Source: Saccharopolyspora gloriosae
GTDB lineage: Bacteria; Actinomycetota; Actinomycetes; Mycobacteriales; Pseudonocardiaceae
DNA: 64,000 bases
NCBI RefSeq assembly: GCF_014203325.1
Contig: NZ_JACHIV010000001.1
Location: 3,659,501 to 3,723,500 of the forward strand
Reading direction: 5' to 3'
In this document: positions 1,129-29,591 of the stretch, in pieces
Layout: each line of letters starts with the position of its first letter
Position numbering within the stretch: position 1 is the first letter of the stretch
Position numbers and translations under genes: made by a program
Notes under the pieces: generated by a model
Databases searched by the model: none
What the model was told of the DNA's origin: nothing
What the model saw: only the letters and a program-made list of their open reading frames with translations

Positions 1129-1142
1129 AAAGACCAGGTCCG

Positions 1143-6971: not shown

Positions 6972-7168
6972 CTTGATCTGTGTCCTGTCAGCGGCGGAGC
7001 CGCTGAGCAGTGACCAGCCAGAGCAGGCCGACCACCGGCGGGTTCTCAGCGGTTTCCTCGCGAGGACGGCTTTTTTCCTCGTGGCGGAGCCACTTGGAAA
7101 AAAGATCCCGCAGCGAGGAAACCGCTGAGGTTCCGCCACCCGACCCACTACGCAGGCCATCCGGAAAC
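6972..7168 (+). repeat. Dispersed covarying palindromic repeat, copy 3
   Basis: Outer stem arms 7047-7061 (CAGCGGTTTCCTCGC) and 7113-7127 are perfectly complementary over 15 bases. Apex as in copy 2. The distal flanks carry TTGATC at the left and GATCAA near 7177 at the right. It lies just beyond the ribBA stop codon and upstream of the fusion gene. Confidence 0.9.
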
Positions 7169-10596: not shown

Positions 10597-10666
10597 GTGC
10601 TCCGCCGCGGCGCACCGCGGCGCCGAATCCCGCTCCATCCTCCGGTACGTGAACAGGAGTAAGACG

Positions 10667-12082
10667 ATGCTGTCTCGCCGCATGCGGCTGTTCGCCTTCG
10701 AATTCCAGGGCCCGGCGCACCTCTCCGCGGGATTGTGGCGGCACGAGAAGGACCAGGGCCACCGCTACAAGGACGTCCGCTACTGGACCGAGTACGCCCG
10801 GTTGCTCGAACAGGGCCGCTTCGACGGGGTGTTCTTCGCCGACAACGTCGGCTACCACGACGTCTACCAGGGCGGCCCCGCCGCCGCGCTCGCCGATGGA
10901 GCGCAGCTGCCCGCGAACGACCCGGCCCTCGTGCTCTCCGCGATGGCCGCAGCCACCGAGCACCTCGGGTTCGGCCTGACCGGCTCGACGACCTACGAGC
11001 ACCCCTACACGCTGGCCCGCAAGTTCAGCACCCTCGACCACCTCACCGACGGCCGCATCGGCTGGAACCTGGTGACCTCCTACGCCGACAGCGCCGCCCG
11101 CAACATCGGCAACGGCCTGCTGCCCTCCCACGACGAGCGCTACGACGTCGCCGCCGAGCACCTGGAGGTCTGCTACAAGCTCTGGGAGGGCTCCTGGGAC
11201 GACGACGCCGTGGTCCGCGACCGGGAGCGCTGCGTCTACGCCGATCCGTTGCGGGTGCACGACATCGACCACCGGGGCAAGTACTTCACCGTGCCGGGGT
11301 TCTCGTTGTGCGAGCCGTCACCGCAGCGCACCCCGGTGATCTTCCAGGCGGGCGGTTCGTCGAAGGGCCGCGCCCTGGCCGCCGCCCACGCCGAAGGCGT
11401 GTTCGTGAACGCCGTGTCGAAGAAGGCGCTGCGCAGGCAGGTGGACGCGCTGCGCCTGCAGGCGGCGCAGGCGGGCCGCGATCCGCGGTCGGTGCGAGTG
11501 CTGCAGATGCTCAACGTCGTCGTCGCCGAGACCGACGAGCAGGCGCACGCGAAGTACGAGCGCTACCGCGAACTGGTCAGCTACTCCGGTGCGATGGCCC
11601 GCTACAGCGGCTGGACCGCCCTGGACATGTCCCAGTTCGACCCGGACGTGCCGCTGCGGCACGTCAAGACCGAGGCCGGGCAGACCATGGTCGACCTGTT
11701 CTCCAAGATGGACCCGGACCGGGAGTGGACACCGCGCGACATCGCCGAATTCATCGGTATCGGCGGCAGCGGGCCCACCATCGTCGGCTCACCGCGCACC
11801 GTCGCCAAGGAGCTGATCAGCTGGGTCGAGGACTGCGACATCGACGGCTTCAACCTCGGCAACGCCGTGAAGTACCAGGACATCGCGGACTTCATCGAAC
11901 TCGTCGTGCCCGAGCTGCAGCGCCGCGAAGCGATGTGGACCGAGTACGAAGGCCGCACCCTGCGCGAGAAGCTCCACGGGCCCGGCCAGGTGCGCCTCGC
12001 CGACGACCACCCGGGCCGCCGGTACGCCCGCGCCCATGCCGGCGCCGCCGCGGGCGACCGGCTCGAAGTCACACCCGCCTGA
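10667..12082 (+). CDS. FMN-dependent monooxygenase, NtaA/SnaA/DszA family
   Basis: 471 residues. The start is ATG 10667, which has ACAGGAG 8 bases upstream; the GTG at 10649 overlaps that site and is less likely. Family landmarks: MRLFAFEFQGPAHLSAGLW, YWTEYARLLEQGRFDGVFFAD, the LTGSTTYEHPYTLARKFSTLDHLTDGRIGWNLVTSY block, and SPQRTPVIFQAGGSSKGRALAA. These two-component TIM-barrel enzymes hydroxylate or desulfonate/dealkylate substrates such as nitrilotriacetate, dibenzothiophene sulfone or pristinamycin precursors, using FMNH2 from a separate reductase. The reductase gene lies immediately upstream. The substrate is unknown; operon context suggests an amine. Confidence 0.9.
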   Translation: MLSRRMRLFAFEFQGPAHLSAGLWRHEKDQGHRYKDVRYWTEYARLLEQGRFDGVFFADNVGYHDVYQGGPAAALADGAQLPANDPALVLSAMAAATEHLGFGLTGSTTYEHPYTLARKFSTLDHLTDGRIGWNLVTSYADSAARNIGNGLLPSHDERYDVAAEHLEVCYKLWEGSWDDDAVVRDRERCVYADPLRVHDIDHRGKYFTVPGFSLCEPSPQRTPVIFQAGGSSKGRALAAAHAEGVFVNAVSKKALRRQVDALRLQAAQAGRDPRSVRVLQMLNVVVAETDEQAHAKYERYRELVSYSGAMARYSGWTALDMSQFDPDVPLRHVKTEAGQTMVDLFSKMDPDREWTPRDIAEFIGIGGSGPTIVGSPRTVAKELISWVEDCDIDGFNLGNAVKYQDIADFIELVVPELQRREAMWTEYEGRTLREKLHGPGQVRLADDHPGRRYARAHAGAAAGDRLEVTPA

Positions 12083-15791: not shown

Positions 15792-16742
15792 CTACGCGTC
15801 GAGGAAGGTGCGGCGGTACTGGGTCGGGGAGGTGCCCAGGTTGCGGGTGAAGTGGTGGCGCAGGTTCGCAGCGGAGCCCATGCCGCAGCGCCGCGCGATG
15901 TCCTCGATGGAGTGATCGGTGGCTTCGAGCAGTTCGCGCGCGCTCGCCAGCCGCCGTTCGTGCAGCCAGCGCAACGGGGTCGTGCCGGTGGAGTCGTGGA
16001 AGCGGCGGAGGAGGGTGCGCGTGCTCAGCCCCGCGTGCCGCGCCACGTCGGCGATGGTCAGCGGGGCGTGCAGGTTCTCGACCATCCAGTGCAGCACCGG
16101 CCCGAGCCCGTCGTCGTAGCGCGGGACGGGGGTTTCGATGTACTGCGCTTGCCCGCCGGGGCGGTGGCTCGGCGCGACGAGGCGGCGCGCCAGCCGGTTG
16201 GCCGCTCCCGTGCCCAGGTCGACGCCGACGAGGTGCAGGCACAGGTCGAGGCCGGCGGACCGTCCCGCGCTGGTGAGCACGTCGCCCTCGTCGACGTAGA
16301 GCACCGCCGGGTCGACCCGCACCCGCGGATACCTGCTCGCCAGCGCGTCGGCGTGCAGCCAGTGCGTGGTGGCGCGGCGCCCGTCCAGCAGGCCCGCGGC
16401 GGCGAACGCGAACGCGCCGGTGCACAGCGCCACCATCCTGGCTCCGGCCAGGTGCGCCGCCCGCACCGCGTCCACCAGGCGCGGTTCCGGTTCGGTCCCG
16501 TGGTCGGGCAGCGCGGGCACCACGACGGTGTCCGCGGCGGCCAGGGCGTCGAGCCCGTGCTCGGTCCGCACCTGGAACCCGCCTTGGACGGAGGTGCCGC
16601 CGGGGTCGGCGGCGCAGAGGCGCAGCGAGTACCAGGGGTCGGCGAGGTCGGGCCGGGCGGTGCCGAAGATTTCGCACGCGATGGACAGCTCGTACATCGG
16701 CATGCCGTCCACTACCGCCACAGCGACGGTTCCGGTGGGCAT
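15792..16742 (-). CDS. GlxA-family AraC-type regulator with DJ-1/PfpI domain
   Basis: 316 residues from ATG 16742 (MPTGTVAVAVVDGM). Residues 1-165 form a DJ-1/PfpI-like domain with the nucleophile-elbow segment VALCTGAFAFAAAGLLDG, and residues 205-305 a double helix-turn-helix of the AraC/XylS class (IADVARHAGLSTRTLLRRFHDSTGTTPLRWLHERRL, then IEDIARRCGMGSAANLRHHFTRNLGTSPTQYRRTF). GlxA-type regulators commonly activate divergent genes in response to small metabolites. The MFS transporter starts 85 bases away on the other strand and is its likely target. An upstream in-frame extension to 16790 exists but lacks support. Confidence 0.9.
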   Translation of the reverse strand: MPTGTVAVAVVDGMPMYELSIACEIFGTARPDLADPWYSLRLCAADPGGTSVQGGFQVRTEHGLDALAAADTVVVPALPDHGTEPEPRLVDAVRAAHLAGARMVALCTGAFAFAAAGLLDGRRATTHWLHADALASRYPRVRVDPAVLYVDEGDVLTSAGRSAGLDLCLHLVGVDLGTGAANRLARRLVAPSHRPGGQAQYIETPVPRYDDGLGPVLHWMVENLHAPLTIADVARHAGLSTRTLLRRFHDSTGTTPLRWLHERRLASARELLEATDHSIEDIARRCGMGSAANLRHHFTRNLGTSPTQYRRTFLDA

Positions 16743-16827
16743 GCCGACAGCGTATGTCACGATCTTGACGAAGGTTGTCGACTCTGCCACTCGTGCGCGC
16801 TGCGAGCCCGGCGCAGACTCGGGACTC

Positions 16828-18103: not shown

Positions 18104-18290
18104 GTCTTGTCAGCGGCGAAGCCGCTGAGCAGCGACCACGCACGCAACCGGACCACCCGCTGGTTCTCAGCGGGATTCTCGCGAGGACAGCTTTTTCCCT
18201 CGTGGCGGAGCCACTCGGGAAAACGATCCCGCAGCGAGAATCCCGCTGAGTTTCCGCCACCCCACCCCTACGCAGGCCCAACCCGAGAAG
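18104..18290 (+). repeat. Dispersed covarying palindromic repeat, copy 5
   Basis: Outer stem arms 18168-18182 (CAGCGGGATTCTCGC) and 18234-18248 are perfectly complementary although the sequence differs from copies 1-3 at three internal positions per arm. Apex CTTTTTCCCTCGTGGCGGAGCC. It lies between convergent genes and supplies the last codons and stop (TAG within CTACGC read in reverse) of the DUF1272 gene. Confidence 0.9.
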
Positions 18291-18528: not shown

Positions 18529-18873
18529 TCACGCCGCACCGTCCTTCGCGAGGCTCGTCGCGGCTTGCTCGGGCACTTCCAGCACGATGGTGTGGTAGCT
18601 GCTGATGCGGGACACGATCTCCTCCCGAGGCCCGGTTTTCCAGGCGTCACCGCCGTAGAACGCGTCCTCCTGCGCGACGCGGGTCTCCAGGTCGGGGAAC
18701 GCGCGGATGAGGTACGCCTCCTCGTGGCCGTCTTCGGCGACCGCCGAGAGCCCGTGGTCGAGCACGCGGATCCCGGACCGGCGCAGCATCGGCACCGACC
18801 TGTCGCGCAGCAGCCCCGCGAAGCTCTCCCCCGTTCCGGGCTCCAGCCGGTAGGTGCGGATCTCGATGATCAC
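18529..18873 (-). CDS. NIPSNAP-family protein
   Basis: 114 residues, GTG 18873 with GAGGAGG 5 bases upstream. N-terminus IIEIRTYRLEPGTGESF, then VLDHG, EEAYLIRAFPDLETRVAQEDAFYGGDAWKTGPREEI, the dimeric ferredoxin-like alpha-beta barrel typical of NIPSNAP proteins. Members have no firmly known general role; some act as small monooxygenase- or isomerase-like subunits in natural product pathways. It overlaps the stop of the permease gene by 4 bases (GTGA), so is the last gene of the hydrazine-locus operon and translationally coupled. Confidence 0.85.
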   Translation of the reverse strand: MIIEIRTYRLEPGTGESFAGLLRDRSVPMLRRSGIRVLDHGLSAVAEDGHEEAYLIRAFPDLETRVAQEDAFYGGDAWKTGPREEIVSRISSYHTIVLEVPEQAATSLAKDGAA

Positions 18874-20009
18874 GTTGCCTCCTCGATCTCGGTTCCCGAA
18901 CGTCTCGCCGCGCCTGCCGGGCCACCGGGTCGCACCAGCGCGAACCGGGCGAACGCGATCGCCCCGACCACGCCGGGGAACAGGATCGCCGGACCCAGCG
19001 CCGGGGACACCACCAGCAGCGCCCCCGCGCCGGCGATGCCCGCGACCCGCGCACCGGTCGCCGCCGCCGCGTTGGCGGCGACCCTGCCGGACATCCAGGC
19101 GAACAGGCACAACGTCATCGCGGCGGGCCCGTAGAGGAAGTAGCCGACCTCCCAGCCACGCAGCTGCGCCAGCACCAGCACGACCGCGACGGGCGCCACC
19201 GCCGCTGCCACCGGCAGCGGACCGCGGGTGCCGCGCAGCCCCGCCGACAACGTCGAGGCCGCGACCAGGTTGGTGCGGCAGTAGCTCACCGCGAGCAGGC
19301 CGACGAGGGCCGCCAGCACCGGGCCCGCGCTCCCCGGCCCGTCGGCACCCGCGCGGACCAGCCGCAACGAGATCAGCCCGGCCCCGAAGGCGGCCACCAC
19401 CAGGAAGACCGGGAACAGCACCCGGCGTCCGGTGCGGGATTCCGCGGGCGACCAGGAGCGGCGCACCTCCCAGCCCACGATGGACACGAAGAACAGCAGC
19501 CCGGTCGCCACCGGCCCGGCCGCGCTCACCGCGCTCGACGTGCCGGACAGGTCCACCGCGGCGGGCCACCACGACCACACCAGCGCGGTGAGCACCGTGA
19601 GCACCGTCCGGGCCCGCTTCGCCGCGTCGCCGAGCGCCGGGCGGGCGAGCGCCAGCAGTCCGCTGAGCACGAGCAGCCCGACGCCGATCCAGCCGCCCGC
19701 GCCGCCGGCGCCGATCGCCGCGGCCACCACGTGCCCGGCGAACCCGCACAGGAACACCTGCCCGGCGAGGATGCCGCCGACGTACCAAGCGCTGATCACG
19801 CCCTGCTCCACCGGGTCGCCCGCGAGCACCCCGCGCTCCTCGGTGCGGTGCGCCAGCGCCAGGCGGGTCGCCACCCCGACGACCAGCCCGAGCGAGCACG
19901 TCAGCAGCCACGACGCGACGTCGACCATCCGGTCCGCGAGCACCGGCACGCACAGCAGCAGCCCCACGCCGACCACTTCGGCCAGCAGGCGGCCGAACGT
20001 CCGCGTCAA
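18870..20009 (-). CDS. Polytopic membrane protein, probable APC-like amino acid/metabolite permease
   Basis: 379 residues, TTG start at 20009 overlapping the stop of the MetRS-like gene by 4 bases (TTGA), with GGGGGC upstream. About 10-11 hydrophobic helices. The segment ISAWYVGGILAGQVFLCGFAG and the later GLLFFVSIVGWEV resemble helices 3 and 6 of APC-superfamily permeases, although the protein is short for that family. Its place between the MetRS-like enzyme and NIPSNAP suggests export of the pathway product or import of a precursor amino acid. Family assignment is tentative; the membrane location is clear. Confidence 0.7.
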   Translation of the reverse strand: MTRTFGRLLAEVVGVGLLLCVPVLADRMVDVASWLLTCSLGLVVGVATRLALAHRTEERGVLAGDPVEQGVISAWYVGGILAGQVFLCGFAGHVVAAAIGAGGAGGWIGVGLLVLSGLLALARPALGDAAKRARTVLTVLTALVWSWWPAAVDLSGTSSAVSAAGPVATGLLFFVSIVGWEVRRSWSPAESRTGRRVLFPVFLVVAAFGAGLISLRLVRAGADGPGSAGPVLAALVGLLAVSYCRTNLVAASTLSAGLRGTRGPLPVAAAVAPVAVVLVLAQLRGWEVGYFLYGPAAMTLCLFAWMSGRVAANAAAATGARVAGIAGAGALLVVSPALGPAILFPGVVGAIAFARFALVRPGGPAGAARRSGTEIEEAT

Positions 20010-21646
20010 CGCTGCCCCCGGTACCGCGCCAGCGGCGTGCGCAGCTCCGGGCCCACCAGCGCGTCGCCGGTCAGGTTCACCGACGCCTCCGGCCAGGTCC
20101 GCAGCCCGTCGAGCGACCAGCTGACCTCGGCGCCGAAGTGGCGCAGCACCGACTCCGACCAGGTCGGCATGATCGGGTAGGCGGCCACCACGAGCCGCAG
20201 GAACGCCTCCGCGAGGTCGTGCAGCCGCCGCCCGCCGCCCGCGGTCTCCTGGCCCAGCGAGTAGATCCGGAACACCTCGGAGTAGGTCTCGACCGCGAAC
20301 GAGCGCAGTTCCTCCGCCGCGGACCGCAGCGAGAACGTGCGGACGTCGAACGCGGCGGCGAGCCGGTCGACCCGTTCCTGCGCCATCGCGGTGTACTTGC
20401 CGGGCGCTGCGGCGTCGAATCGCGGGATGCGCCCCGCATAGCTGCGCCGCACCATGCCGACCAGCAGCTCGGCGGTGTCTCCGAAGTAGGTGCCGAGTTC
20501 CCGCGTCGCCGCGTCGAAGCGCTGCCGGTAGAAGCTGGTCTCCTCGGTCTCCGGGCTGGTGCGTGCCAGGTAGAACCGGACGGCGTCGGCCGCGTGCTCC
20601 TCGAAGAACTCCGAGCCCCAGATGGCGTGACCGCGGCTGGTGGAGAACTTCAGCCCTTCCAGCTGGTAGAACTCGTTGGTCACGATCTGCTCGGGCAGCA
20701 CCAGCGACTCCTCCGCCATGCACAGCGCGGGCCAGAACACGGCGTGCGAGTACAGGCAGTCGAAACCGAGGAAGTGCACCACCGCGGTCTCCGGGTCCTC
20801 CCAGATGTCGCGGCCGGACCTTTCCGAGTTCATCCCGCCCTGCAACGTGTCCAGGCTGAACAGGTAGCCGCACACCCCGGCGAACCAGGTGTCGATGATG
20901 TGGCCCTCCCACCCGGGCAGCGGCACGGGCACGCCGTAGGTGCCGCGCCGGGTGAACGCGGCGTCCTCCAGCGGCTCGGCGAGCAGCGCCTTGATGAAGT
21001 CGCGCGGACGCGGGCGGAGGTCGACGGAGTCCAGGTAGTTGCGCAGCGCCTTGCGGTACCGCTCCACGGGCAGCACGATCCGCTCTTCGTCCACGATGGA
21101 CGGAGCTTCGCCGCAGAAGTGGCAGCGCGGTTCGGCGAGCCCGTCGCTGGCCTGCGGCCAGCCGCACGCCTCGCAGTACATGCCGCCGTTGGTCGAACCG
21201 CACTCCTGGCACAGTCCGGTGAGTTCGGCCTCGTACAGGTTGAGGTCGCAGGTCTCGCAGTGGAACACGCGCTGGGTGCGGACTTCGAGGCGACCGCGCT
21301 CCCACAGGCGCAGGAACAGGTCGTGCACCACTTCGACGTGCCGCGGGTCCTGCTTGGGGTGGGCGAAGCGGTCCGGGAGCATGTTGCCGCCGGCCAGGGA
21401 CCGCTCCATCCGCTGGGCGAAGCGGTACGCGGTCCGATGTGGATCCTCGCCGATCTCCGCCGCTTTCCGGGGCACGTAGCAGGAATGCTCGTCGGCGTAG
21501 CTCACGTGGTGCACCCGGTGACCGGTCTGGCGCAGGTAGCGAGATAGCACGTCGGAGCCGAGGAAAGGGCCGGAGAGGTGACCGAGGTGCAGGTCGCCGT
21601 TCGGGTTCGGCGGGGCCGCGGTCACCACGTACGTCTTGTTCTCCAC
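20006..21646 (-). CDS. Methionyl-tRNA-synthetase-like enzyme, probable hydrazine-synthetase ligase component
   Basis: 546 residues, GTG with GGGAG 6 bases upstream. It has the class I synthetase active site: PPNPNGDLHLGH (12-23, HIGH motif), a four-pair zinc-knuckle region (Cys130, 133, 146, 149, 158, 161, 175, 178), HFLGFDCLYSHAVFWPA (291-307) as in MetRS, and a KMSKS variant KFSTS (333-337). The C-terminal helical region is short and no tRNA-binding EMAP/OB domain is present. As a second MetRS inside a small operon with an N-hydroxylase, a cupin and an FAD oxidase, it resembles the MetRS-like half of hydrazine synthetases such as Spb40, which adenylate an amino acid and join it to an N-hydroxylated lysine. 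Housekeeping MetRS is the less likely alternative. Confidence 0.85.
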   Translation of the reverse strand: MENKTYVVTAAPPNPNGDLHLGHLSGPFLGSDVLSRYLRQTGHRVHHVSYADEHSCYVPRKAAEIGEDPHRTAYRFAQRMERSLAGGNMLPDRFAHPKQDPRHVEVVHDLFLRLWERGRLEVRTQRVFHCETCDLNLYEAELTGLCQECGSTNGGMYCEACGWPQASDGLAEPRCHFCGEAPSIVDEERIVLPVERYRKALRNYLDSVDLRPRPRDFIKALLAEPLEDAAFTRRGTYGVPVPLPGWEGHIIDTWFAGVCGYLFSLDTLQGGMNSERSGRDIWEDPETAVVHFLGFDCLYSHAVFWPALCMAEESLVLPEQIVTNEFYQLEGLKFSTSRGHAIWGSEFFEEHAADAVRFYLARTSPETEETSFYRQRFDAATRELGTYFGDTAELLVGMVRRSYAGRIPRFDAAAPGKYTAMAQERVDRLAAAFDVRTFSLRSAAEELRSFAVETYSEVFRIYSLGQETAGGGRRLHDLAEAFLRLVVAAYPIMPTWSESVLRHFGAEVSWSLDGLRTWPEASVNLTGDALVGPELRTPLARYRGQR

Positions 21647-21676
21647 AGGAACTCCCAAACCGGTAGTGGGCAAGCG

Positions 21677-21718
21677 GGTAGCGGGCATGCGGTAGCGGGC
21701 ATGCGGTAGCGGGCATGC
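21677..21718. repeat. Three tandem 14-bp repeats before the MetRS-like gene
   Basis: GGTAGCGGGCATGC occurs three times head-to-tail (21677, 21691, 21705) and once imperfectly at 21662. Each unit contains the palindrome GCATGC. They lie in the 113-base leader between cysE and the MetRS-like gene, 31 bases from its start, where they could affect expression or simply be replication slippage. Confidence 0.8.
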
Positions 21719-21759
21719 GGTCGGAAAGGCACTGCGAACCGTTCGCGCGAACGGGGACG

Positions 21760-22305
21760 TCAGGAAGCCGGGGTGCGCGCGCCCTGCCTGCCGTCCCTGG
21801 CGTGCACGACGGCCCCAGGCAGCACGGAGCGGGTGACGACCGCGTGGGCGGCGATGTGCGCCCCGGCACCGATCTCGATGGCACCGAGCACGCTCGCGTT
21901 GGTGCCCACCACGACGTGGTCGCCGATGACGGGATGCCGGGTGGAGCCCGGACCGCCGTCCTTCCACCAGCCCACCGAGCCGAGGGTCACCTGGTGGTAG
22001 AGCATCACGTCGTCCCCGATGACGCAGGTCTCGCCGATCACCACGGCGGCACCGTGATCGACGAAGAACCGCCGTCCGATGCGCGCACCGGGGTGGATCT
22101 CGATGCCGGTCAGGATGCGCGCCGCGTTCGCCAGCACCCTGGCCGGGACGTACCGGCGGTTCCGGTAGCAGCGGTGCGCGATCCGGTACGTCCAGAGCGC
22201 GGTGATGCTGGCGTGCAGCAGCGCTTCGGCTCTGCTGCGGACCGACGGGTCCTTGCCGAGGACCGTGTCCAAGTCCTCTTTCATGCGCGGGAGAATGTTC
22301 GTCAC
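21760..22305 (-). CDS. Serine O-acetyltransferase-type hexapeptide acyltransferase
   Basis: 181 residues from GTG 22305; an ATG 7 codons later is an alternative. The CysE signature is clear: ALWTYRIAHRCYRNRRYVPARVLANAARILTGIEIHPGARIGRRFFVDHGAAVVIGETC, with the Asp-His pair of the active site in VDHG, followed by left-handed beta-helix hexapeptide repeats up to VVGTNASVLGAIEIGAGAHI. It lacks much of the N-terminal helical domain of full-length CysE, as in short actinobacterial forms. SAT makes O-acetylserine from serine and acetyl-CoA. No cysK partner is next to it. It lies between the FAD oxidase and MetRS-like genes, so a role in supplying or modifying an amino acid of the hydrazine pathway is inferred. 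Confidence 0.85.
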   Translation of the reverse strand: MTNILPRMKEDLDTVLGKDPSVRSRAEALLHASITALWTYRIAHRCYRNRRYVPARVLANAARILTGIEIHPGARIGRRFFVDHGAAVVIGETCVIGDDVMLYHQVTLGSVGWWKDGGPGSTRHPVIGDHVVVGTNASVLGAIEIGAGAHIAAHAVVTRSVLPGAVVHARDGRQGARTPAS

Positions 22306-22358
22306 CTCGAACCTCAGAGCCTGTCGTGGAACTTGGCCCGCTCAGCGGATTGCTCAGC

Positions 22359-22520
22359 GGTACCTCAGCGGCTGCCGCACCGACGTTCGCCGGGTGTGGC
22401 CGCGACTTCCTGTTGCGCGCCGCTGTGCGGCGAGCGCGCCGTCCTCGCGGAGGGACCGCCGAGGGCTCCCCGGCGGTCGTTCCGCTGGAGCCGGTCGCTG
22501 CTCAGCGGGTCCGCCGATGG
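22359..22520 (-). repeat. Dispersed repeat, copy 6 (decayed)
   Basis: Matches the minus-orientation repeat only in patches: CCTCAGCGG near 22363, GCCGTCCTCGCG near 22438, and GAGCCGGTCGCTGCTCAGCGG near 22488. Stem complementarity is largely lost. It fills the 22306-22566 gap between the FAD oxidase and the acetyltransferase genes; no gene is supported there. Confidence 0.5.
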
Positions 22521-22566
22521 CGGGCGGGCGGTGCGCACCGGGGACGACGAGGTCGGCAGCGGGCGC

Positions 22567-23721
22567 TCAGACCGTGCTGTAGGTGTAGTCCGACGAGATC
22601 GATTCGCTGGTGGCGAACCGGTCCGGCCGGTAGGCGGCGGACATCGGGTTCGGCGCCCCGGTCGCGATCTCGCTCGCGACGGCGTGCCCGACTCCGGCGG
22701 CGAGCTTGAAACCGCCGCCGCTCATCCCGGTGGCCAGGTAGATCCCGGGCTTCCCGGACCAGCCCACCAGCGGCCGCCGGTCCGGTGTGTACGCCTCGAA
22801 GCCCACGCCGCCGCCCACCACGGCGGCCCCTGCGGTGCGGGGGACCCGTTCGGAGAGCGCGTCGCGGGCGGCGAGCACCGTGCGCCGGTCGAGTTCGGCC
22901 GAGCCCCGTTCGTCGCCGAGCTCCTGGTCCACCCCGAACAGCACGCCCGCGTCCCCGTCCGGCCGGTAGTAGGTGCCGAGGACGTCGTCGATGACCAGCG
23001 GAATCCGCACCGGTCCGGCGCCGGTGGCGGCGACCGAGGCCGTACCGATGGGACGGGACCGGATGGGCACGCTCACCCCGGCCGTGGCGCCCAGGTGGTG
23101 CGACCAGATCCCGTTGGCCAGCACCACGACGTCGGCCTCCACGTCCGCGCCGGGCAGCTCGGCGACGACCGGCCCGCCCTCGCCGACCGACAAGTGCTGC
23201 ACCCGGCTGCGGAGGCGGAACCGCACGCCCCGGTCGGCCGCCAGCCGCGCCAGCGCCGCCGAGATCTCCGCGGGCGCCGCGTAGCCCGCGTCCTGCTCGA
23301 CGGCCACCACCTCGGTGGCCGCGAGCCGCAGGTCGGGGTGCGCGGACCGCACGGATTCCCGGTCGTGCAAGGCGATCCGGATGCCGGCCTGCCGGGCCCG
23401 CGCGACGTGGGCTTCGAGCACGCCGCGGTTGGCCTCGTCGGTGATGAACGCGAACCCGGTGCGCCGGAACCGCCCCGGGCCGGCGTGCCGCGCGGTGAGG
23501 TCGCGCATCAGCGGGACCGCGCGCGCGGCCAGCTCCAAGTCCACATCGGACATGTGCAGTCCGCGGATCAGACCGCCGGACTTCGCGGTCGCACCGACCT
23601 CCGCGACCTGGTTCTGCTCGCAGACGGTGACCTGCACCGAGGGGTGCGCCGCGAGGTGGTACGCGACGCTGACACCGATGACCCCGGCACCGACGACGAG
23701 CACCCGGACGTCCGCGGTCAT
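22567..23721 (-). CDS. FAD-dependent D-amino-acid/glycine/sarcosine oxidase-like enzyme (DAO family)
   Basis: 384 residues, ATG 23721 overlapping the cupin stop (ATGA). N-terminal VRVLVVGAGVIGVSVAYHLAAHP (5-27) is the FAD dinucleotide fold; AKSGGLIRGLH follows, and the C-terminus has TPDRRPLVGWSGKPGIYLATGMSGGGFKLAAGVGHAVA, the typical DAO closing motif. In known hydrazine pathways a glycine-oxidase-like member oxidises the lysine-glycine hydrazine intermediate, releasing hydrazinoacetic acid. The tight coupling to the cupin and the company of an N-hydroxylase and MetRS-like enzyme fit that role. A plain amino-acid oxidase is the alternative. Confidence 0.88.
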   Translation of the reverse strand: MTADVRVLVVGAGVIGVSVAYHLAAHPSVQVTVCEQNQVAEVGATAKSGGLIRGLHMSDVDLELAARAVPLMRDLTARHAGPGRFRRTGFAFITDEANRGVLEAHVARARQAGIRIALHDRESVRSAHPDLRLAATEVVAVEQDAGYAAPAEISAALARLAADRGVRFRLRSRVQHLSVGEGGPVVAELPGADVEADVVVLANGIWSHHLGATAGVSVPIRSRPIGTASVAATGAGPVRIPLVIDDVLGTYYRPDGDAGVLFGVDQELGDERGSAELDRRTVLAARDALSERVPRTAGAAVVGGGVGFEAYTPDRRPLVGWSGKPGIYLATGMSGGGFKLAAGVGHAVASEIATGAPNPMSAAYRPDRFATSESISSDYTYSTV

Positions 23722-24095
23722 GCGGGGGTCGCCTCGCCGGTGGGGAACCAGATGGACAGGTAGACGAGGTCGTCGGCGCCGTCGTTGGTCACCTCGTGCT
23801 CCACGCCGGGCCGGATGTGCACCTCGTCGCCGTAGGCGACCGGTTCCGCCTCGTCGCCCACCCGCACCGTGCCGGTGCCACCGAAGAAGAAGAAGATCTC
23901 GCGTTCGTGGTGCGCGTGCGCCGTGGACGTCTGCCCCGGGGCGACCGCGCACCACGCGCCTTCGAACGGGAACTTCCCGATGACCTCCGGAGCGGACAGG
24001 CGCTTCGCTCTCAGGTTGTAGTCGGCCTCGTAGGTCAACCCGTTGCTCGGCCAGGAACGCAGGTCCACGGCGATCTCCCAAGGTGTCGTCCTCAT
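23718..24095 (-). CDS. Stand-alone cupin, probable hydrazine-synthetase cupin component
   Basis: 125 residues from ATG 24095. A single-domain cupin with metal ligands His60, His62, Glu66 (HAHHERE) and His100 (HIRPGVEHEV), that is, a complete 3-His/1-Glu set. In Spb40-type hydrazine synthetases a cupin domain of this kind is fused to a MetRS-like domain and catalyses N-N bond formation through rearrangement of an ester between the amino acid and an N-hydroxylated amine. Here the two parts are separate genes in the same operon. The ribosome site is weak. An in-frame upstream GTG near 24135 would add a short extension. Confidence 0.8.
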   Translation of the reverse strand: MRTTPWEIAVDLRSWPSNGLTYEADYNLRAKRLSAPEVIGKFPFEGAWCAVAPGQTSTAHAHHEREIFFFFGGTGTVRVGDEAEPVAYGDEVHIRPGVEHEVTNDGADDLVYLSIWFPTGEATPA

Positions 24096-24500
24096 CGGTT
24101 CGCCGGCCGCACCGGCGAGTGATCCGAACACTACGAACGGAATTCGCCGGTGTCCCGCGCTGAGCACGGAGAACGGTCTCCACGTTCGACTAGCGCTTCC
24201 GGGCGAACACGCGACTCCGTTCACCTCGGCGCCGTTCGTCCCGCGACTCCACCACCTCCCCGATCGTCGTATTCGGGTCCGGAATCGCAGGCACGACTAC
24301 CGCGAAGGTGGAGGCGAAGTCGTCGATTTCCCGCATTCCGGCTCCGTCGAGGTGCACCGACGTGCAGTGCGTTTCGGCCGCCGATCGAGGCCGGATCGGC
24401 TTTTCGGCCGGTAGATTTCTCCTCGCGGTAGCCGTGCGCACACCGCACCGCTGCCGCACCAATCCACACGCCCGCTTGTCGGATTTTTAATGGGGTAGCC
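24096..24500. promoter_or_regulatory. Divergent promoter region of the hydrazine locus
   Basis: 405 bases between the cupin operon (leftward) and the N-hydroxylase gene (rightward). It is AT-richer near 24470-24495 (GGATTTTTAATGGGG) just before the TTG start. No ORF with a ribosome site was supported and no clear inverted-repeat operator was recognised. Confidence 0.5.
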
Positions 24501-25763
24501 TTGACTTCATTCGACGTTGAAGTGCTCGCCGTGGGAGCCGGTCCGTCCAATCTGGCCTTGATGGTGGCGCTGGAGGACGCCGAGTCCGGACTTGCCGAGC
24601 AGACCCTGATGGTCGAACAGCACGCCGAGGTGCAGTGGCAGCGCGGCATGCTCATCCCCTGGGCGCAGAGCCAGGTCTCGTTCGTCAAGGACCTCGCCAC
24701 GCCGCGCAACCCGCGCAGCCGCTTCACCTTCCTCAACTACCTGCACGAACAGGGCCGGATGGACGAATTCGTCAACCTCGGCACCTTCCACCCGTACCGC
24801 CTGGAGATCTCGAACTACTTCCGGTGGGCCGCGTCGAACCTGTCGCGAGTGCGGTCCCGGTACAACACGCGGTGCGAGACCATCGCCCCGATCGTCGGCG
24901 AGGACGGAACGGTCACCGGCTGGTCGGCCCGATTCGGCGACGGTTCGACGGTGACGGCCCGCGACGTGGTCTTCGGGATCGGCCGGGACGCGCACGTTCC
25001 GGCGGTGTTCCGGGACCTCCCCGAATCCCGCCTCATCCACAGCACCCGATTCCTGGACCGGGTCGAGGAACTGCGCGACAACGGCTGGCGGCGCCCGGTC
25101 GTGGTCGGCGGGGCGCAGAGCGCCGCGGAAATGTTCGCGTCCGTTCAGGACTACGTCCCGGGCAGCAGTCCCACGATCATCATGCGGTCCATCGGTTTCG
25201 ACTACTACCAGACCAGTTCGTTCACCAACGAGCTCTACTACTCGTCCTTCGTCGACGAATTCCACAGCGCGCCGCCGCAGCAGCGGGAACGCATGAACGC
25301 GGAAATGCGCACCACGAACTACGCCGGCCTGGCACCGTACCTGCTGGATTCGCTCTACCGGGACCAATACCTGCAACGACTGGTGGGCGACGAGCGCTTC
25401 CGGATCGTCACCACCACCGACATCACCTCGGCCCGCGTCGACGGGGACGAGGTCGTGCTCACCACGTTCGACCGCAAGACCGAGCGCAAGTCCGAGGTCC
25501 GCTGCGACGTGGTGCTGCTCGGCACCGGGTTCGACCAGCGACCGCCCGGCCTGGTGCGCTCCGCGGTGGAGGGCGCCGGAGCGCGGGACGCGACCGTCGA
25601 CCGGAACTACCGGGTGGAACTGGGTGAGGACGACCGCGCGGGGATCTACCTGCACGGCCTCAACGAGGACACCCACGGCATCTCCGACTCGCTGCTGAGC
25701 GTCCTCGCCCAGCGCGCCACCGAGATCAGCGCGGACATGGTCAAACGCCGCTCCAACGACTGA
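24501..25763 (+). CDS. SidA/IucD/PvdA-family lysine or ornithine N-monooxygenase
   Basis: 420 residues, TTG start with GGGG 6 bases upstream. FAD motif VGAGPSNLAL (11-20), substrate/FAD segment VQWQRGMLIPWAQSQVSFVKDLATPRNPRSRFTFLNYL in the typical place, NADPH motif VVVGGAQSAAEMF (about 190-203), VVLLGTGFDQR, and the C-terminal family hallmark NEDTHGISDSLLS. These enzymes hydroxylate the side-chain amine of Lys or Orn using NADPH and O2. No siderophore NRPS or IucA/C-type synthetase is near. With the divergent cupin/DAO/MetRS-like genes the product is more likely N6-hydroxylysine feeding N-N bond formation (inference). Repeat copy 7 follows its stop. Confidence 0.92.
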   Translation: MTSFDVEVLAVGAGPSNLALMVALEDAESGLAEQTLMVEQHAEVQWQRGMLIPWAQSQVSFVKDLATPRNPRSRFTFLNYLHEQGRMDEFVNLGTFHPYRLEISNYFRWAASNLSRVRSRYNTRCETIAPIVGEDGTVTGWSARFGDGSTVTARDVVFGIGRDAHVPAVFRDLPESRLIHSTRFLDRVEELRDNGWRRPVVVGGAQSAAEMFASVQDYVPGSSPTIIMRSIGFDYYQTSSFTNELYYSSFVDEFHSAPPQQRERMNAEMRTTNYAGLAPYLLDSLYRDQYLQRLVGDERFRIVTTTDITSARVDGDEVVLTTFDRKTERKSEVRCDVVLLGTGFDQRPPGLVRSAVEGAGARDATVDRNYRVELGEDDRAGIYLHGLNEDTHGISDSLLSVLAQRATEISADMVKRRSND

Positions 25764-25787: not shown

Positions 25788-25960
25788 CTGCGTAGCAGGT
25801 CGGGTGGCGGAACCTCAGTAGTCTTCTCGCTGCGGGATCTTTTTCCCAAGTGGCTCCGCCACGAGGGAAAAAGCCGTCCTCGCGAGAAGACTACTGAGAA
25901 CCCGCGGGTGGTCTTCTTGCTTTGGTGGTCGCTGCTCAGCGGCTTCGCCGCTGACAAGAT
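25788..25960 (-). repeat. Dispersed covarying palindromic repeat, copy 7
   Basis: Outer stem arms 25816-25830 (CAGTAGTCTTCTCGC) and 25882-25896 are perfectly complementary. This arm differs from copy 3 at six or so positions, all compensated. Apex TTTTTCCC/GGGAAAAA with GTGGC-TCC-GCCAC. Between convergent genes. Confidence 0.92.
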
Positions 25961-26060
25961 TGCGATGAACAACTCGCGCGCACACCGGAAATGCGACGTC
26001 GAAGACAGGCGCTGAGGCCATCCGAGGCGGGGCTCCGAAGTGGAGCCCCGCCTCGTGGCG

Positions 26061-26582
26061 TTACCAGCCGCGTTCGCCGTCCCACTGCTCGCGGATGATG
26101 TCGGCTTGGCCGGCGTGGCGGGCGGTGTCGAGCGCGACGTGGCACAGGGCCCAGCGCAGGGTGTAGTCGCCCGCGGTCTGCGCGCCGGTGCTCGTGAGCT
26201 CCAGTTCGTCGATGACGGCGTCGCTCGCCGCGCAGGCCGCGTCGTAGCGCTCCAGCAGCACCGGCAAGTCCTCGCCGGCGCCCAGAACCCAGTCGCCGTC
26301 CGGGTTCTCCGGGCCGAACGGCATCGGCAGGGTCGTTCCCCCCAGAACTTCCTGGAACCAGTGCTGCTCGACGGTCGTGAGGTGCTTGACGATGCCGCCG
26401 AGCGAGGTGCTGGACCGGGTGGGGTTGTAGGCGGCGCCGTCGGCGGTGATCCCGCGGACCTTGGCCCGGATCGTGTCGCGCCCGAACCGCAACCAGCTCC
26501 GCAGCATGTCCTTCTCGTCGAGACCGTGCTTCGGGATCCACCGATCCGGTTTGCCCACGCAGGTCGGGACGTGATGCGCCAT
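26061..26582 (-). CDS. DinB-family protein (DUF664 type)
   Basis: 173 residues, GAGGAG about 11 bases before ATG. DinB/DUF664 four-helix bundle: DEKDMLRSWLRFGRDTIRAKV, SLGGIVKHLTTVEQHWFQEVL and the C-terminal LRWALCHVALDTARHAGQADIIREQWDG. The His residues at the starts of helices 2 (KHL), 2-end (EQHW) and 4 (ARHAGQ) form the usual metal site. Members include bacillithiol/mycothiol-dependent transferases and many uncharacterised enzymes. Probably cytoplasmic. It is 29 bases downstream of the amino-acid permease gene on the same strand, probably co-transcribed. Confidence 0.88.
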   Translation of the reverse strand: MAHHVPTCVGKPDRWIPKHGLDEKDMLRSWLRFGRDTIRAKVRGITADGAAYNPTRSSTSLGGIVKHLTTVEQHWFQEVLGGTTLPMPFGPENPDGDWVLGAGEDLPVLLERYDAACAASDAVIDELELTSTGAQTAGDYTLRWALCHVALDTARHAGQADIIREQWDGERGW

Positions 26583-26611: not shown

Positions 26612-27868
26612 TCAGGCCGCGACGGGCGTCTTCGGCTTCGCGTAGCGGCGGAACGCCAGCGAGCCCAGTGCCAGCGCGACCGGCAGCAGCAGGAACCACC
26701 CGGAGAACACCAGCACCACGGCCATGACCGCGCACGCCACCAGCGAACCGATCCAGACCGCCGAGCCGGTGGGCAGCAGCTTCGCACCGGCGGCGAGCCC
26801 CGCGACGTACACGGCCATGAAGCACGCCGACGCGGCGAGCATCAGGTTCCCCAGGTCCATCCCGGCCGCCAGCGCCCCGGTGGCCACGACGACCGTGACG
26901 CCACCGAGCACCGCGAGGCTGCGGCGCGGGGTCTCCCCCGCCGCGCCACCGCGGGCCAGCGGCAGCGGCAGCGCACCGTCGCGCGCGAGCGCGGCACCGA
27001 GCCGGGCCCCGCCGGCGAGGTAGGCGTTCATCACCCCGGTGGTCAGCAGGAACGCCAGCACGCCGGTCAGCATCGCCGCCCCGGAGCCGAGCCCTTCCTC
27101 CAGCAGCAGGGTGATCGGCACCGACGAGGCCGCCAGCCGCGGTCCGAGCACGAGCACGCAGGTCAGCGCGAGCCCGACGTAGAGGACGCCGACGACCACC
27201 AGCGTCCAGGCGGTGACCTTCGGCAGGTCCCGCTTCGGGTCGGCGAAGTCGCCGGAGAGGTGCGTGACCGCCTCCCATCCGGCGAAGGTGAAGAACAGGA
27301 CGCTGGCCGCGCGTCCCACCGCCGCCCACCCGTTCGGCAGGAACGGCGCGAGGTTGCCGGGGTCGGCCTTCGGCAGCGCGGCGAGCACGGTCACGACCAT
27401 CAGCAGGGCCAGCACGCTGATCAGCAGCAGCTGCACCCCGCCCGAGACGTGCAGGCCGATCGCGTTGGTCGTCAGCCCGATCAGCACGATCACGGCCGCG
27501 ACCAGGTAGGCCACGTCGTCGCCCGCGCCGAAGGCGTGCGCGACGTACTGGCCGCCGACGTAGGCGACGGCGGTGGCTCCGATGGGCAGCGCGAAGTAGA
27601 ACCACCACCCCACCGCCGCGCTGGCCTGCGGCCCGAAGGCCTGCTTGACGAAGGTGGCGACGCCGCCACCGTCCGGGTACCGGGTGCCGAGCGCGGTGAA
27701 GGTCGCCGCCACCGGCACGCACAGCGCCACCAGCGCCAGCCACGCGAGCACCGACGCCGGACCGGCGATCTGCGCCGCCAGGGACGGGAGGGCGAGCACG
27801 CCCGCGCCGAGGATGGCGCCCACGTAGAGCGCGGTTCCTTGCGCGAGCCCGATTCGTCGATCGCTCAC
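26612..27868 (-). CDS. APC-superfamily amino acid permease
   Basis: 418 residues, GTG 27868 with GGAGG 10 bases upstream. Twelve hydrophobic helices; helix 1 carries GTALYVGAILGAGVLALPSLAA, the glycine-rich APC substrate site, and helix 6 the FFTFAGWEAVTHLSGDFADPKRDLPKV motif. It most likely imports or exchanges an amino acid or amine at the cytoplasmic membrane (YjeH-like subgroup is my best guess). A divergent Lrp/AsnC-type regulator starts 137 bases away and is the likely controller. Confidence 0.9.
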   Translation of the reverse strand: MSDRRIGLAQGTALYVGAILGAGVLALPSLAAQIAGPASVLAWLALVALCVPVAATFTALGTRYPDGGGVATFVKQAFGPQASAAVGWWFYFALPIGATAVAYVGGQYVAHAFGAGDDVAYLVAAVIVLIGLTTNAIGLHVSGGVQLLLISVLALLMVVTVLAALPKADPGNLAPFLPNGWAAVGRAASVLFFTFAGWEAVTHLSGDFADPKRDLPKVTAWTLVVVGVLYVGLALTCVLVLGPRLAASSVPITLLLEEGLGSGAAMLTGVLAFLLTTGVMNAYLAGGARLGAALARDGALPLPLARGGAAGETPRRSLAVLGGVTVVVATGALAAGMDLGNLMLAASACFMAVYVAGLAAGAKLLPTGSAVWIGSLVACAVMAVVLVFSGWFLLLPVALALGSLAFRRYAKPKTPVAA

Positions 27869-28005
27869 CGGCGGTGACCTCCTGCGTTTGGCGTGCTCGG
27901 CGGCTTGCGCGCACCACCCCGGTACCGGCACGGTGACACGACACGATGCGTTCAGCTTATATATCGTAGGCGGAACGTGTCCATCACCTTCGAAAGACAG
28001 GCGCC

Positions 28006-28473
28006 GTGGCGGAAACACCTTCGGAAATGGACTCGATCGACCTCGCGTTGCTCGCCGACCTCCAGCGGGACGGCAGGACTTCCCACGCCGAGCTGGCGCG
28101 CCGCGTCGGGCTCAGCGCGCCCGCGGTCGCCGAGCGGCTGCGCCGCTTGGAGCGGACCGGGGTGATCACCGGCTACGCGGTGCGCCTCGACCCGGCGAAG
28201 CTCGGCTTCGGCATCGTGGCGTTCATCCGCCTCGCCGCGTTCGGCGTCGGCTACCGGGACGAGGCGGTGCAGGACCTGCTGCGCCTGCCCGAGGTCATGG
28301 AGACGCACCACGTCGTGGGCGAGGACTGCTGGATCTTCAAGGTCGCCGTCCCCGACGTCGGCAGGCTCGAATCGGTCCTGTCCAAGATGACCGAGGTCGG
28401 CCGCACGACGACCTCCATCGTCCTGTCCTCCCCGGTCACCGACAACACCCTCCCGTTGACCCCGGAATCCTGA
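28006..28473 (+). CDS. Lrp/AsnC-family transcriptional regulator
   Basis: 155 residues from GTG 28006; ATG 28027 is an alternative start. Residues 8-55 form the winged helix (MDSIDLALLADLQRDGRTSHAELARRVGLSAPAVAERLRRLERTGVI), residues 65-150 the AsnC ligand-binding (RAM) domain with VMETHHVVGEDCWIFKVAVPD. Such regulators respond to amino acids and usually control neighbouring transport or metabolic genes. It is divergent from the APC permease, with an AT-rich stretch (TTATATATCG, near 27958) in the shared promoter. Repeat copy 8 lies 35 bases after the stop. Confidence 0.92.
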   Translation: MAETPSEMDSIDLALLADLQRDGRTSHAELARRVGLSAPAVAERLRRLERTGVITGYAVRLDPAKLGFGIVAFIRLAAFGVGYRDEAVQDLLRLPEVMETHHVVGEDCWIFKVAVPDVGRLESVLSKMTEVGRTTTSIVLSSPVTDNTLPLTPES

Positions 28474-28507: not shown

Positions 28508-28676
28508 TCCTTGTCCTGCCAGGAGCCGCTGAGCAGCGACCACGCAGCCAGCCGGACCACCCGCGGGTGCTCAGCGTTCTTCTCGCGAGGACGGGGTCTT
28601 CCCTCGTGGCGGAGCCACTCGGGAGAAAGATCCCGCAGCGGGAAGAACGCCGAGGTTCCGCCACCCGACCCTGCGC
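28508..28676 (+). repeat. Dispersed covarying palindromic repeat, copy 8
   Basis: Outer stem arms 28572-28586 (CAGCGTTCTTCTCGC) and 28638-28652: 13 of 15 pairs are Watson-Crick, one is a G-U-type wobble, one a mismatch. The left small hairpin is decayed (GTCCTGCCAGGAGCCGCTGAG). Between convergent genes (Lrp and LuxR). Confidence 0.88.
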
Positions 28677-28695: not shown

Positions 28696-29385
28696 TCACT
28701 CCGCCGATTCCGTGAAGAGTCTCTTGTTTAGCCAGCCCGTGCGGTACACCATCGCCACGATCTGGGACCGCTCGTCGAAGTTGAGCTTGCTGAGCACGTT
28801 GGAGATGTGCGTTTTCACGGTGGCCCTGGTGATGAAGGTGCGAGTGGCGATCTCCTTGGTGGTCATGCCCATCGCGAGCATCTGCGCGATCTCCTGCTCC
28901 CGGTTGGTGAGCACGTCGAAGACCACCTGGTCCGCCGGTTCGGACAGCCGACCGGTCTCATTGATCATCTGCACGACGTGGGTGGTGATGGTGGGCGCCA
29001 GGCTGCATTCGCCGTTGAGCAGCGCCCGCGCGGTGTTGACCAGCACCGCGGGCTCGTCGTACTTCGTCACCAGCCCGCGCACCCCCATTTCGAGCGCGCG
29101 CAGGACGTCGTCCAAGCCGCTGGAGAGCACCGCGAGCACGGGTGTCGCCTGCGAGTGCCGCATCCGGTTGCGCAGCAGCGCCGGTCCCGGGTCTTCGAGC
29201 AGCGAGTCGAAGTAGACCACGACGAGGTCGATGTGCGCGTTCTCCAGCGCCCGCAACAGGTCGGACTCGTTGGCCGTGACGTCGATGCTCGCTTCGGGCA
29301 GCTGGCGCAGGGTGGCGACGATCCCCGCTCCCGCGAGCCGGTCGTTGGTGTGGACCACGATCTTCGGCCCCTCGACGTCGCCCAC
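28696..29385 (-). CDS. LuxR-family response-regulator-like transcription factor
   Basis: 229 residues from GTG 29385, which has CAGGAG 4-9 bases upstream; a longer frame to 29553 lacks support. Residues 1-125 form a receiver-like domain (KIVVHTNDRLAGAGIVATLRQLP ... DLVVVYFDSLLEDPG ... VLAVLSSGLDDVLRALEMGVRGLVTKYD). The N-terminal acidic pair and phospho-Asp of true receivers are poorly conserved, so it may be phosphorylation-independent. Residues 155-215 are the LuxR/NarL HTH (LTNREQEIAQMLAMGMTTKEIATRTFITRATVKTHISNVLSKL). No histidine kinase is adjacent. Its long upstream region (about 1 kb) is unusual. Confidence 0.88.
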   Translation of the reverse strand: MGDVEGPKIVVHTNDRLAGAGIVATLRQLPEASIDVTANESDLLRALENAHIDLVVVYFDSLLEDPGPALLRNRMRHSQATPVLAVLSSGLDDVLRALEMGVRGLVTKYDEPAVLVNTARALLNGECSLAPTITTHVVQMINETGRLSEPADQVVFDVLTNREQEIAQMLAMGMTTKEIATRTFITRATVKTHISNVLSKLNFDERSQIVAMVYRTGWLNKRLFTESAE

Positions 29386-29591
29386 CGACTCCTGCAGACC
29401 GATCCCCAACGCCCGTCCCCCCGGCTCGTCCTGATGCCTGCCCTCCCGCGCCACCTGCCCATGGGGGCGTTCTTCGATGCACGGGATCACCCTCCCGACC
29501 ACATCCCCGCCGTCATCCCGGCGACGCCGCACCCGGACCGCCCGGCCGATCACCTTTCCTCCCGAAAACGAGGATCGGGAAAACCCTCAAC

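What the first reader, a model, noticed from the sequence alone, without database searches (positions are those of the whole stretch)
18529..25763. Compact N-N bond (hydrazine) biosynthesis locus with a split hydrazine synthetase
A SidA-type N-hydroxylase (24501) is divergent from an operon with a stand-alone 3-His/1-Glu cupin (23718), a DAO-type FAD oxidase (22567), a CysE-like acyltransferase (21760), a MetRS-like enzyme with HLGH and KFSTS motifs but no tRNA-binding C-terminal domain (20006), a permease and a NIPSNAP protein. In s56-p1 biosynthesis the same three activities (lysine N-hydroxylase, cupin/MetRS-like fusion Spb40, glycine-oxidase-like FAD enzyme) produce hydrazinoacetic acid; related sets occur for pyrazomycin and other N-N natural products. 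Here cupin and MetRS-like parts are separate genes and no NRPS or PKS is present, so the product may be a small free hydrazine-type amino acid. I am not aware of a described version with this layout, including cysE and NIPSNAP.
Basis: partly seen in the sequence, partly recalled or inferred. Interest (0 to 1): 0.9.

Follow-up and report, generated by a model that had tools for sequence, protein, structure and literature searches.

The report
Hydrazine-making gene cluster with serine acetyltransferase
This actinomycete carries a small gene cluster that very probably joins two nitrogen atoms using a two-protein version of a known enzyme, and a serine-acetylating partner that its sampled relatives all share suggests an unusual amino-acid building block.

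Summary

Not found in what I could search: the protein sits in a supported clade (30 rows, 100/98) whose 30 sampled loci all carry a CysE-type acetyltransferase, against 0 of 45 loci of other MetRS-like proteins. In one genome CysE and the MetRS-like part are a single reading frame. The clade shares one 12-residue amino-acid pocket code (30 of 30; 0 of 45). Best guess, about 0.4: CysE makes O-acetyl-L-serine, methionine-shaped, which the MetRS-like enzyme activates. No activity is shown.

NIPSNAP is below Pfam's cut-off and unmatched in relatives. The window also differs from its clade: its N-hydroxylase is of another lineage and the diaminobutyrate transaminase is missing.

The parts
24501..25763 (+). 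SidA-type flavin N-hydroxylase (NMO); likely amine N-hydroxylation (Lys, Orn or diaminobutyrate not resolved)
   Evidence: PF13434 277 bits; PDB best 4tlx KtzI, then 3s5w L-ornithine 5-monooxygenase and 9nns L-lysine N6-monooxygenase MbtG, close in score; groups with NMOs of non-CysE-type MetRS-like loci
23718..24095 (-). stand-alone metal cupin, N-N bond forming half of the split hydrazine synthetase
   Evidence: PF07883 52.7 bits; metal motif H60/H62/E66/H100; PDB best 4rd7 and 4mv2, RHS1 5uqp only ninth of 16
22567..23721 (-). DAO/sarcosine-oxidase-type FAD oxidase, likely oxidative cleavage of the hydrazine adduct
   Evidence: PF01266 176.5 bits; family present in 30 of 30 clade loci
21760..22305 (-). 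CysE/EpsC-type serine O-acetyltransferase-like enzyme, clade-defining partner
   Evidence: NF041874 166.8 bits over cut-off 150; TIGR01172 174.5, under 210.65; D92, D157, H158, R192, H193 kept, D143 is Glu; 30 of 30 against 0 of 45
20006..21646 (-). MetRS-like amino-acid activating half of the split hydrazine synthetase
   Evidence: PF09334; HLGH and KFSTS; top structural match PyrN domain 9l8v; clade 100/98
18870..20009 (-). membrane protein (9 hydrophobic stretches by a simple hydropathy scan), relative of the permease that follows MetRS-like genes in relatives
   Evidence: profile of permeases following the gene in relatives, 78.8 bits but with a composition bias of 68; a profile of the APC family alone gave no match
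18529..18873 (-). small NIPSNAP-like protein, coupled to the permease gene; role unknown
   Evidence: PF07978 20.4 bits, below the cut-off of 22.3; no match in the loci searched
26061..26582 (-). possible accessory: mycothiol-S-transferase/DinB-type protein
   Evidence: PF04978 142.5 bits; 56% identical neighbour in L068 only
26612..28018 (-). possible accessory: amino-acid permease (APC type)
   Evidence: PF13520 123.6 bits; the family is in 9 of 30 clade loci, window included
28006..28473 (+). possible accessory: Lrp/AsnC regulator
   Evidence: PF13404, PF01037; family in 6 of 30 loci, window included
28696..29490 (-). possible accessory: LuxR-type regulator (a common family, so weak evidence)
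   Evidence: PF00196; family in 6 of 30 loci, window included
15792..16790 (-). possible accessory: GlxA/AraC regulator
   Evidence: PF12833, PF01965; family in 4 of 30 loci, window included, 61% identical in L084

Best explanation
A dedicated N-N bond pathway of the MetRS-like/cupin hydrazine-synthetase kind, in a sub-clade whose sampled members all carry a CysE-type acetyltransferase. Shown by sequence and predicted fold: the five-gene set, its exclusive link with CysE in the loci examined, the PyrN-like fold, and one invariant pocket. Inferred from family chemistry: the flavin enzyme N-hydroxylates the side-chain amine of a diamino acid; the MetRS-like protein adenylates a second amino acid and passes it to the N-OH group as an ester; the zinc cupin rearranges the ester to an N-N bond; the FAD oxidase oxidises a C-N bond of the adduct to release a smaller hydrazine or hydrazone. 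Inferred here, about 0.4: CysE makes O-acetyl-L-serine, close to methionine in length and shape, and this is what the MetRS-like enzyme activates. The acetate would then be a built-in leaving group, so the adduct can undergo beta-elimination to a hydrazone, free hydrazine or an electrophilic azo-alkene. Joining the two enzymes would help because O-acetylserine turns spontaneously into N-acetylserine (recalled). The number below is for the core claim (N-N locus with CysE as a pathway enzyme), not for the O-acetylserine step.
Against: No activity is shown. Likeness to the methionine pocket is graded, not unique: the clade keeps 8 of 12 E. coli residues, the controls 3 to 7; W253, Y260 and H301 together are kept in 5 of 45 controls and 15 of the 21 non-CysE-type proteins. 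Only the full code is unique. Twenty-six of the 30 rows were reached through patterns, one of which holds the P13/N15 stretch, so those two positions are partly selected. Several Streptomyces rows are near-identical, so 30 is not 30 independent events. The window row has a long branch. By sequence alone true MetRS 1rqg scores above PyrN's domain. By single-sequence search RHS1 is only ninth of 16 PDB cupins, behind structures such as the DMSP lyase DddK. CysE's D143, the Asp that backs the catalytic His, is Glu in 20 of 30, window included, and the protein is under the TIGR01172 cut-off. Serine-using hydrazine synthetases are already reported (PMC8664883), so serine itself could be the substrate.
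Confidence: 0.8

Rival explanations
1. CysE acts after N-N formation: the synthetase couples L-serine (or another amino acid) and CysE then O-acetylates the hydrazino-serine, or N-acylates the hydrazine, to protect it or set up the next step, as succinyltransferases do in the azaserine and dob pathways.
For: Serine-using synthetases exist (PMC8664883); succinylation of hydrazinoacetic acid is known in azaserine (PMC13274452, section read) and dob (PMC13061610, passages). CysE and MetRS-like genes are adjacent and once in one frame, which fits either order.
Against: CysE keeps most L-serine site residues. The pocket has Gly at A256 rather than the Met seen in many other types, which I read as room for a side chain larger than serine's.
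Confidence: 0.3
2. The MetRS-like enzyme activates methionine itself, as proposed in 2010, and CysE merely feeds cysteine and methionine supply.
For: Eight of 12 methionine-pocket residues are kept; a Met-Lys product was proposed in PMC2922099 (section read).
Against: L13, Y15, A256 and K295 of the pocket are P, N, G and F in 30 of 30, and F300 is Ser in 30 of 30. No cysteine or methionine synthesis family was recognised among the shared families that I annotated; not all neighbours were annotated.
Confidence: 0.1
3. CysE is simply the organism's serine acetyltransferase for cysteine, and its place beside the cluster is incidental.
For: It is the only CysE match in the genome at E 1e-10.
Against: The five same-genus genomes have no CysE-model match over 33 bits and no such MetRS-like gene; 30 of 30 against 0 of 45 linkage; single frame in L091.
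Confidence: 0.1
4. The MetRS-like protein is an ordinary second MetRS (for example a resistance copy), or the locus is a siderophore locus with unrelated neighbours.
For: Profile hits are to methionine--tRNA ligase models; SidA-type NMOs are common in siderophore loci (recalled).
Against: The methionine--tRNA ligase models all score under their cut-offs; best fold match is PyrN; far from housekeeping MetRS in the tree; cupin, NMO and DAO present in 30 of 30.
Confidence: 0.03

Closest known systems
RHS1 and its MetRS-like partner, Rhodococcus jostii RHA1 (PMC8664883, passages)
   Same: Stand-alone zinc cupin plus stand-alone MetRS-like protein plus lysine N-hydroxylase; N-N activity shown
   Different: Couples glutamate and was found by mining for a saccharopine dehydrogenase partner; no CysE in the passages I read
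PyrN (pyrazomycin), Spb40 (s56-p1), Tri28 (triacsin), AzaE/AzsN (azaserine)
   Same: MetRS-like plus cupin chemistry on an N-hydroxylated amine; a DAO-type oxidase (Spb39, Tri27) where described (PMC11705231, section read)
   Different: Didomain fusions; Gly or Glu substrates; PyrN pocket differs at D52, W253, H301 and W305 (by eye)
Apy9/Apy10/Apy11 (actinopyridazinone)
   Same: Diaminobutyrate-based N-hydroxylase, synthetase and FAD oxidase (PMC11705231); 24 of 30 clade loci carry a diaminobutyrate transaminase, though not the window
Afn8/Afn9/Afn18 (albofungin)
   Same: Separate MetRS-like and cupin genes with an N-hydroxylase; proposed route to free hydrazine (PMC11705231)
   Different: Large polyketide cluster with a hydrazine transferase (Afn14); no gene of PKS size near the window locus
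CysE/EpsC serine O-acetyltransferases
   Same: Hexapeptide fold family and most serine-site residues; NF041874 over its cut-off
   Different: Asp143 replaced by Glu in 20 of 30; a GWW stretch in 30 of 30; linked to a hydrazine synthetase

Membership tests
ATP-dependent MetRS-like/cupin hydrazine synthetases | MetRS-like protein distinct from the housekeeping MetRS | tested here: met
ATP-dependent MetRS-like/cupin hydrazine synthetases | fold closest to a proven member's MetRS-like domain (PyrN) | tested here: met
ATP-dependent MetRS-like/cupin hydrazine synthetases | intact adenylation motifs (HIGH and KMSKS-type) | tested here: met
   LHLGHLSGPF and KFSTSRGH
ATP-dependent MetRS-like/cupin hydrazine synthetases | partner cupin with the metal ligands and the catalytic Glu | tested here: met
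   H60/H62/E66/H100 by alignment; RHS1 uses D63/H65/E69/H103, so the first ligand is His here; metal content itself not tested
ATP-dependent MetRS-like/cupin hydrazine synthetases | SidA-type N-hydroxylase encoded alongside | tested here: met
ATP-dependent MetRS-like/cupin hydrazine synthetases | makes an N-N bond from an amino acid and an N-hydroxy diamino acid | not testable with these tools
   needs enzyme assay
Didomain (fused) hydrazine synthetases such as Spb40 and PyrN | cupin and MetRS-like parts in one protein | tested here: not met
   separate genes 23718-24095 and 20006-21646 with DAO and CysE between
s56-p1/triacsin/azaserine hydrazinoacetic-acid pathways | glycine-specific synthetase | tested here: inconclusive
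   pocket code differs from all 45 controls, but no proven Gly-type sequence was available
Serine O-acetyltransferase (CysE TIGR01172 / EpsC NF041874) | score over the curated cut-off | tested here: inconclusive
   EpsC model met (166.8 over 150), CysE equivalog model not met (174.5 of 210.65)
Serine O-acetyltransferase (CysE TIGR01172 / EpsC NF041874) | residues D92, D143, D157, H158, R192, H193 | tested here: inconclusive
   five of six kept in the window; D143 is Glu in the window and in 20 of 30
NIPSNAP (PF07978) | score over Pfam's gathering cut-off | tested here: not met
   20.4 of 22.3 bits

The most novel reading that the evidence does not exclude
A hydrazine synthetase sub-family that activates O-acetyl-L-serine made on the spot by its own CysE, so that acetate serves as a leaving group on the N-N adduct and gives elimination chemistry (pyruvate hydrazone and free hydrazine, or an electrophilic azo-alkene) not described for the Gly, Ala, Ser, Glu and Tyr types in the papers I could search.
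Probability: 0.4. Interest if true: 0.78.

Novelty: new variant of a known kind. Interest (0 to 1): 0.6.

Why it matters
Natural N-N bond enzymes are sought as biocatalysts, and which amino acids the MetRS-like/cupin family accepts is a main open point. A clade found in Streptomyces, Amycolatopsis, Paractinoplanes, Symbioplanes and Nocardia, with one invariant, unassigned pocket and a constant acetyltransferase partner, gives a direct, cheap test of a new substrate (ATP-PPi exchange with O-acetylserine). If right, it adds a leaving group to the hydrazine toolbox and a handle (CysE next to a MetRS-like gene) for finding small hydrazine metabolites made without NRPS or PKS.

Tried and rejected
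Housekeeping or resistance MetRS: rejected. Novelty of the split layout: rejected on reading. First genome-contig scan with the single protein: no relative; the second, with alignment A1, worked. Phylum sample at E 1e-100: only the window's genome and G446 of 396. A profile search of 392 genomes of G446's genus was meant as a fresh test: of 29 newly fetched loci, 8 carried the pocket code and all 8 had CysE, 21 had other codes and none had CysE. It is weak as a test: the 8 are 96-100% identical to proteins already seen and one of the 21 is L065 again, and these loci reach only about 1.5 kb either side. It does show no in-between variant: 9 matches above 860 bits, the next at 480. NIPSNAP and DUF3291 (one member annotated; family in 4 of 30 loci) may be stand-ins for each other; no sequence link was looked for beyond the family calls. 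PMC12154649 on a heme-type hydrazine family has no mention of cupin or acetyltransferase. PADLOC: nothing for three proteins. Plasmid collection: 39 records, all under 60% identity, best of the 20 listed 36%; not followed up. The N-hydroxylase substrate could not be settled: the genome has an EctB over its cut-off elsewhere, so diaminobutyrate is probably available. AlphaFold2 coordinates were not among the readable files, so no docking.

Rows dropped: the MetRS-like tree used 69 of 89 rows, leaving out duplicates, short rows and extra copies, with L091 cut to its MetRS-like part. The NMO tree used 60 rows: 21 chosen control loci, proteins of 380 aa or more, seven Streptomyces loci left out.
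Full report
What is there. Pfam gives Lys_Orn_oxgnase, Cupin_2, DAO, tRNA-synt_1g and Hexapep over their cut-offs; NIPSNAP is under its cut-off and the membrane protein has no family. Cupin/DAO, MetRS-like/permease and permease/NIPSNAP overlap by 4 bases. The N-hydroxylase is divergent.

Not the housekeeping enzyme. The genome (6.8 Mb, one contig) has a full MetRS elsewhere (510 bits at C1:5041020), 27% identical to the window protein. In a 69-row tree the seven housekeeping MetRS rows sit on a branch of length 3.15 from the 62 MetRS-like rows, and the window row lies in a 30-row clade with support 100/98. The window branch is long (1.02), and its join with two Nocardia rows inside the clade is flagged as possibly false; I rely only on its place in the clade.

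Cupin. The metal motif HxHx3E...H is present at residues 60, 62, 66, 100. In RHS1 the ligands are D63, H65, E69, H103, and E69 is essential (passages of PMC8664883). RHS1 5uqp is matched at E 3e-5 but is ninth of 16 PDB cupins; 4rd7 and 4mv2 lead. In 9 of the 29 relatives the motif reads like HVNPDGESE instead; 7 of these 9 loci also have the P450 family.

The split is known. PMC2922099 (passages and section 7) reported in 2010 that paralogous MetRS genes have either a fused or a neighbouring stand-alone cupin, always with a lysine N6-monooxygenase, and in some cases a diaminobutyrate transaminase or a cysteine synthase. PMC8664883 (abstract and passages; [quoted passage not shown] The review PMC11705231 (section 4.1.2.1) lists more.

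CysE. Using an alignment of four members, a scan of genome contigs returned 27 loci (L088 and G179's contig have the same length of 287,156 bases and the same matches, so I count them once). With the window, G158 and G446 this gives 30 loci. All 30 hold NMO, cupin, DAO, CysE and MetRS-like genes: CysE was called as its own gene in 28, is in one frame with the MetRS-like part in L091 (725 aa, no stop between), and in L084 was seen by BLAST. In 45 loci of other MetRS-like proteins from the same family and class (9, 36; 43 of about 20 kb, one of 19 kb, one of 12 kb), CysE was found in 0 of 45 (E 1e-6, eight clade loci as the source of queries), cupin in 45, NMO in 44, DAO in 8 and the transaminase in 1. 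The five same-genus genomes lack such a MetRS-like gene and have no CysE-model match over 33 bits, so CysE probably arrived with the cluster. Its residues D157, H158, R192 and H193 are kept in 30 of 30, D92 in 29 (one row does not reach it), and D143 is Asp in 10 and Glu in 20, window included (roles from PMC9547175, passages).

Pocket. At the 12 methionine-pocket positions of E. coli MetRS named in PMC3742241 (passage) the clade reads PNHDWGYGFDHW in 30 of 30; the 45 controls show 18 other codes and never this one. The clade keeps 8 of the 12 E. coli residues, the controls 3 to 7, housekeeping rows 9. F300 is Ser and I297 Cys in 30 of 30. PyrN (Glu) has Val, Met, Arg and Phe at D52, W253, H301 and W305 (by eye), so these positions vary with the substrate. 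Many other types have Met at position 256, which I take to fill the pocket; the clade has Gly. One code over proteins that are 38-45% identical to the window suggests one shared amino acid, Met-sized and more polar: O-acetyl-L-serine fits and is what CysE enzymes make. Limits: W253, Y260 and H301 together are kept in 5 of 45 controls and in 15 of 21 other Streptomyces proteins; P13 and N15 lie in a pattern used to find most rows; rows are not independent.

Six of the eight cysteines of a double zinc ribbon are kept in 30 of 30 and two in 29 of 30; PMC2922099 describes a duplicated zinc ribbon for the family.

The window is unusual within its clade. Its NMO groups with the NMOs of other MetRS-like loci (13-row group, SH-aLRT 100; about 50-56% identity to that type) and not with the NMO groups of its own clade. 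It lacks the diaminobutyrate transaminase present in 24 of 30 loci (TIGR00709 over its cut-off in 3 of 3 tested) and the second NMO seen in 21 of 30 (counted; some contigs are cut short). None of the seven transaminase hits lies inside the window, though EctB elsewhere could supply diaminobutyrate. So the amine partner in the window may differ from that of its relatives.

Mechanism and product. Core steps follow from characterised relatives; the CysE step is inference. If O-acetylserine is coupled, oxidation or elimination on the adduct would give a hydrazone, free hydrazine or an azo-alkene. The absence of NRPS- or PKS-sized genes from 9 to 36 kb fits a small product. In 12 of 30 loci there is a family whose L085 member is an L-amino-acid ligase-type ATP-grasp protein, suggesting dipeptides there.

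Novelty search. Ten paper searches were made, eight on this topic or its structures. In their listings no hydrazine-synthetase paper showed CysE, serine acetyltransferase or O-acetylserine among the terms counted. CysE does not occur in PMC2922099 or PMC11705231; 'acetyltransferase' occurs once, elsewhere, in PMC11705231 and not at all in PMC8664883. Subscription papers (for example on Apy9 and the 2024 phylogeny of the family) and supplements were not readable, so it may be described there.

Noticed in passing
window 936-1130, 4180-4374, 6973-7167, 18105-18266, 25798-25960, 28524-28671, 47519-47681, 61022-61111: A dispersed palindromic repeat of about 90-195 bp occurs in both orientations; the copy at 25795-25965 folds far better than shuffles (z -6.5). 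The first look gave 443 candidates in this genome, of which 40 were scored (41 matches), and it occurs in all five same-genus genomes. Inverted copies happen to bracket the locus at 18105 and 25798.
   Followed up: partly
L058, L068-L080, L082-L085, L088, L093, L094: A second, different N-hydroxylase in 21 of 30 clade loci (counted) suggests a second N-oxidation, possibly on the hydrazine itself.
   Followed up: partly
L071, L073-L078, L080-L083, L085: Twelve clade loci carry a family whose one annotated member (L085) is an ATP-grasp protein of the L-amino-acid ligase type, pointing to dipeptide products.
   Followed up: no
L072 4781-7763 (Streptomyces philanthi bv. triangulum 23Af2 by its record title): Both N-hydroxylase genes appear broken into pieces in different frames while cupin, DAO, CysE and MetRS-like frames are open.
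   Followed up: no
L059-L067, L109-L144: The 45 other MetRS-like loci show 18 distinct pocket codes with varied neighbours: a wide, mostly unassigned substrate range.
   Followed up: partly
window 10093-12082: A gene that I labelled flavin-reductase-like from its look (family in 3 of 30 clade loci) followed by one that reads like a flavin-dependent (NtaA-type) monooxygenase by recollection; neither was searched, and they are not clearly part of the locus.
   Followed up: no
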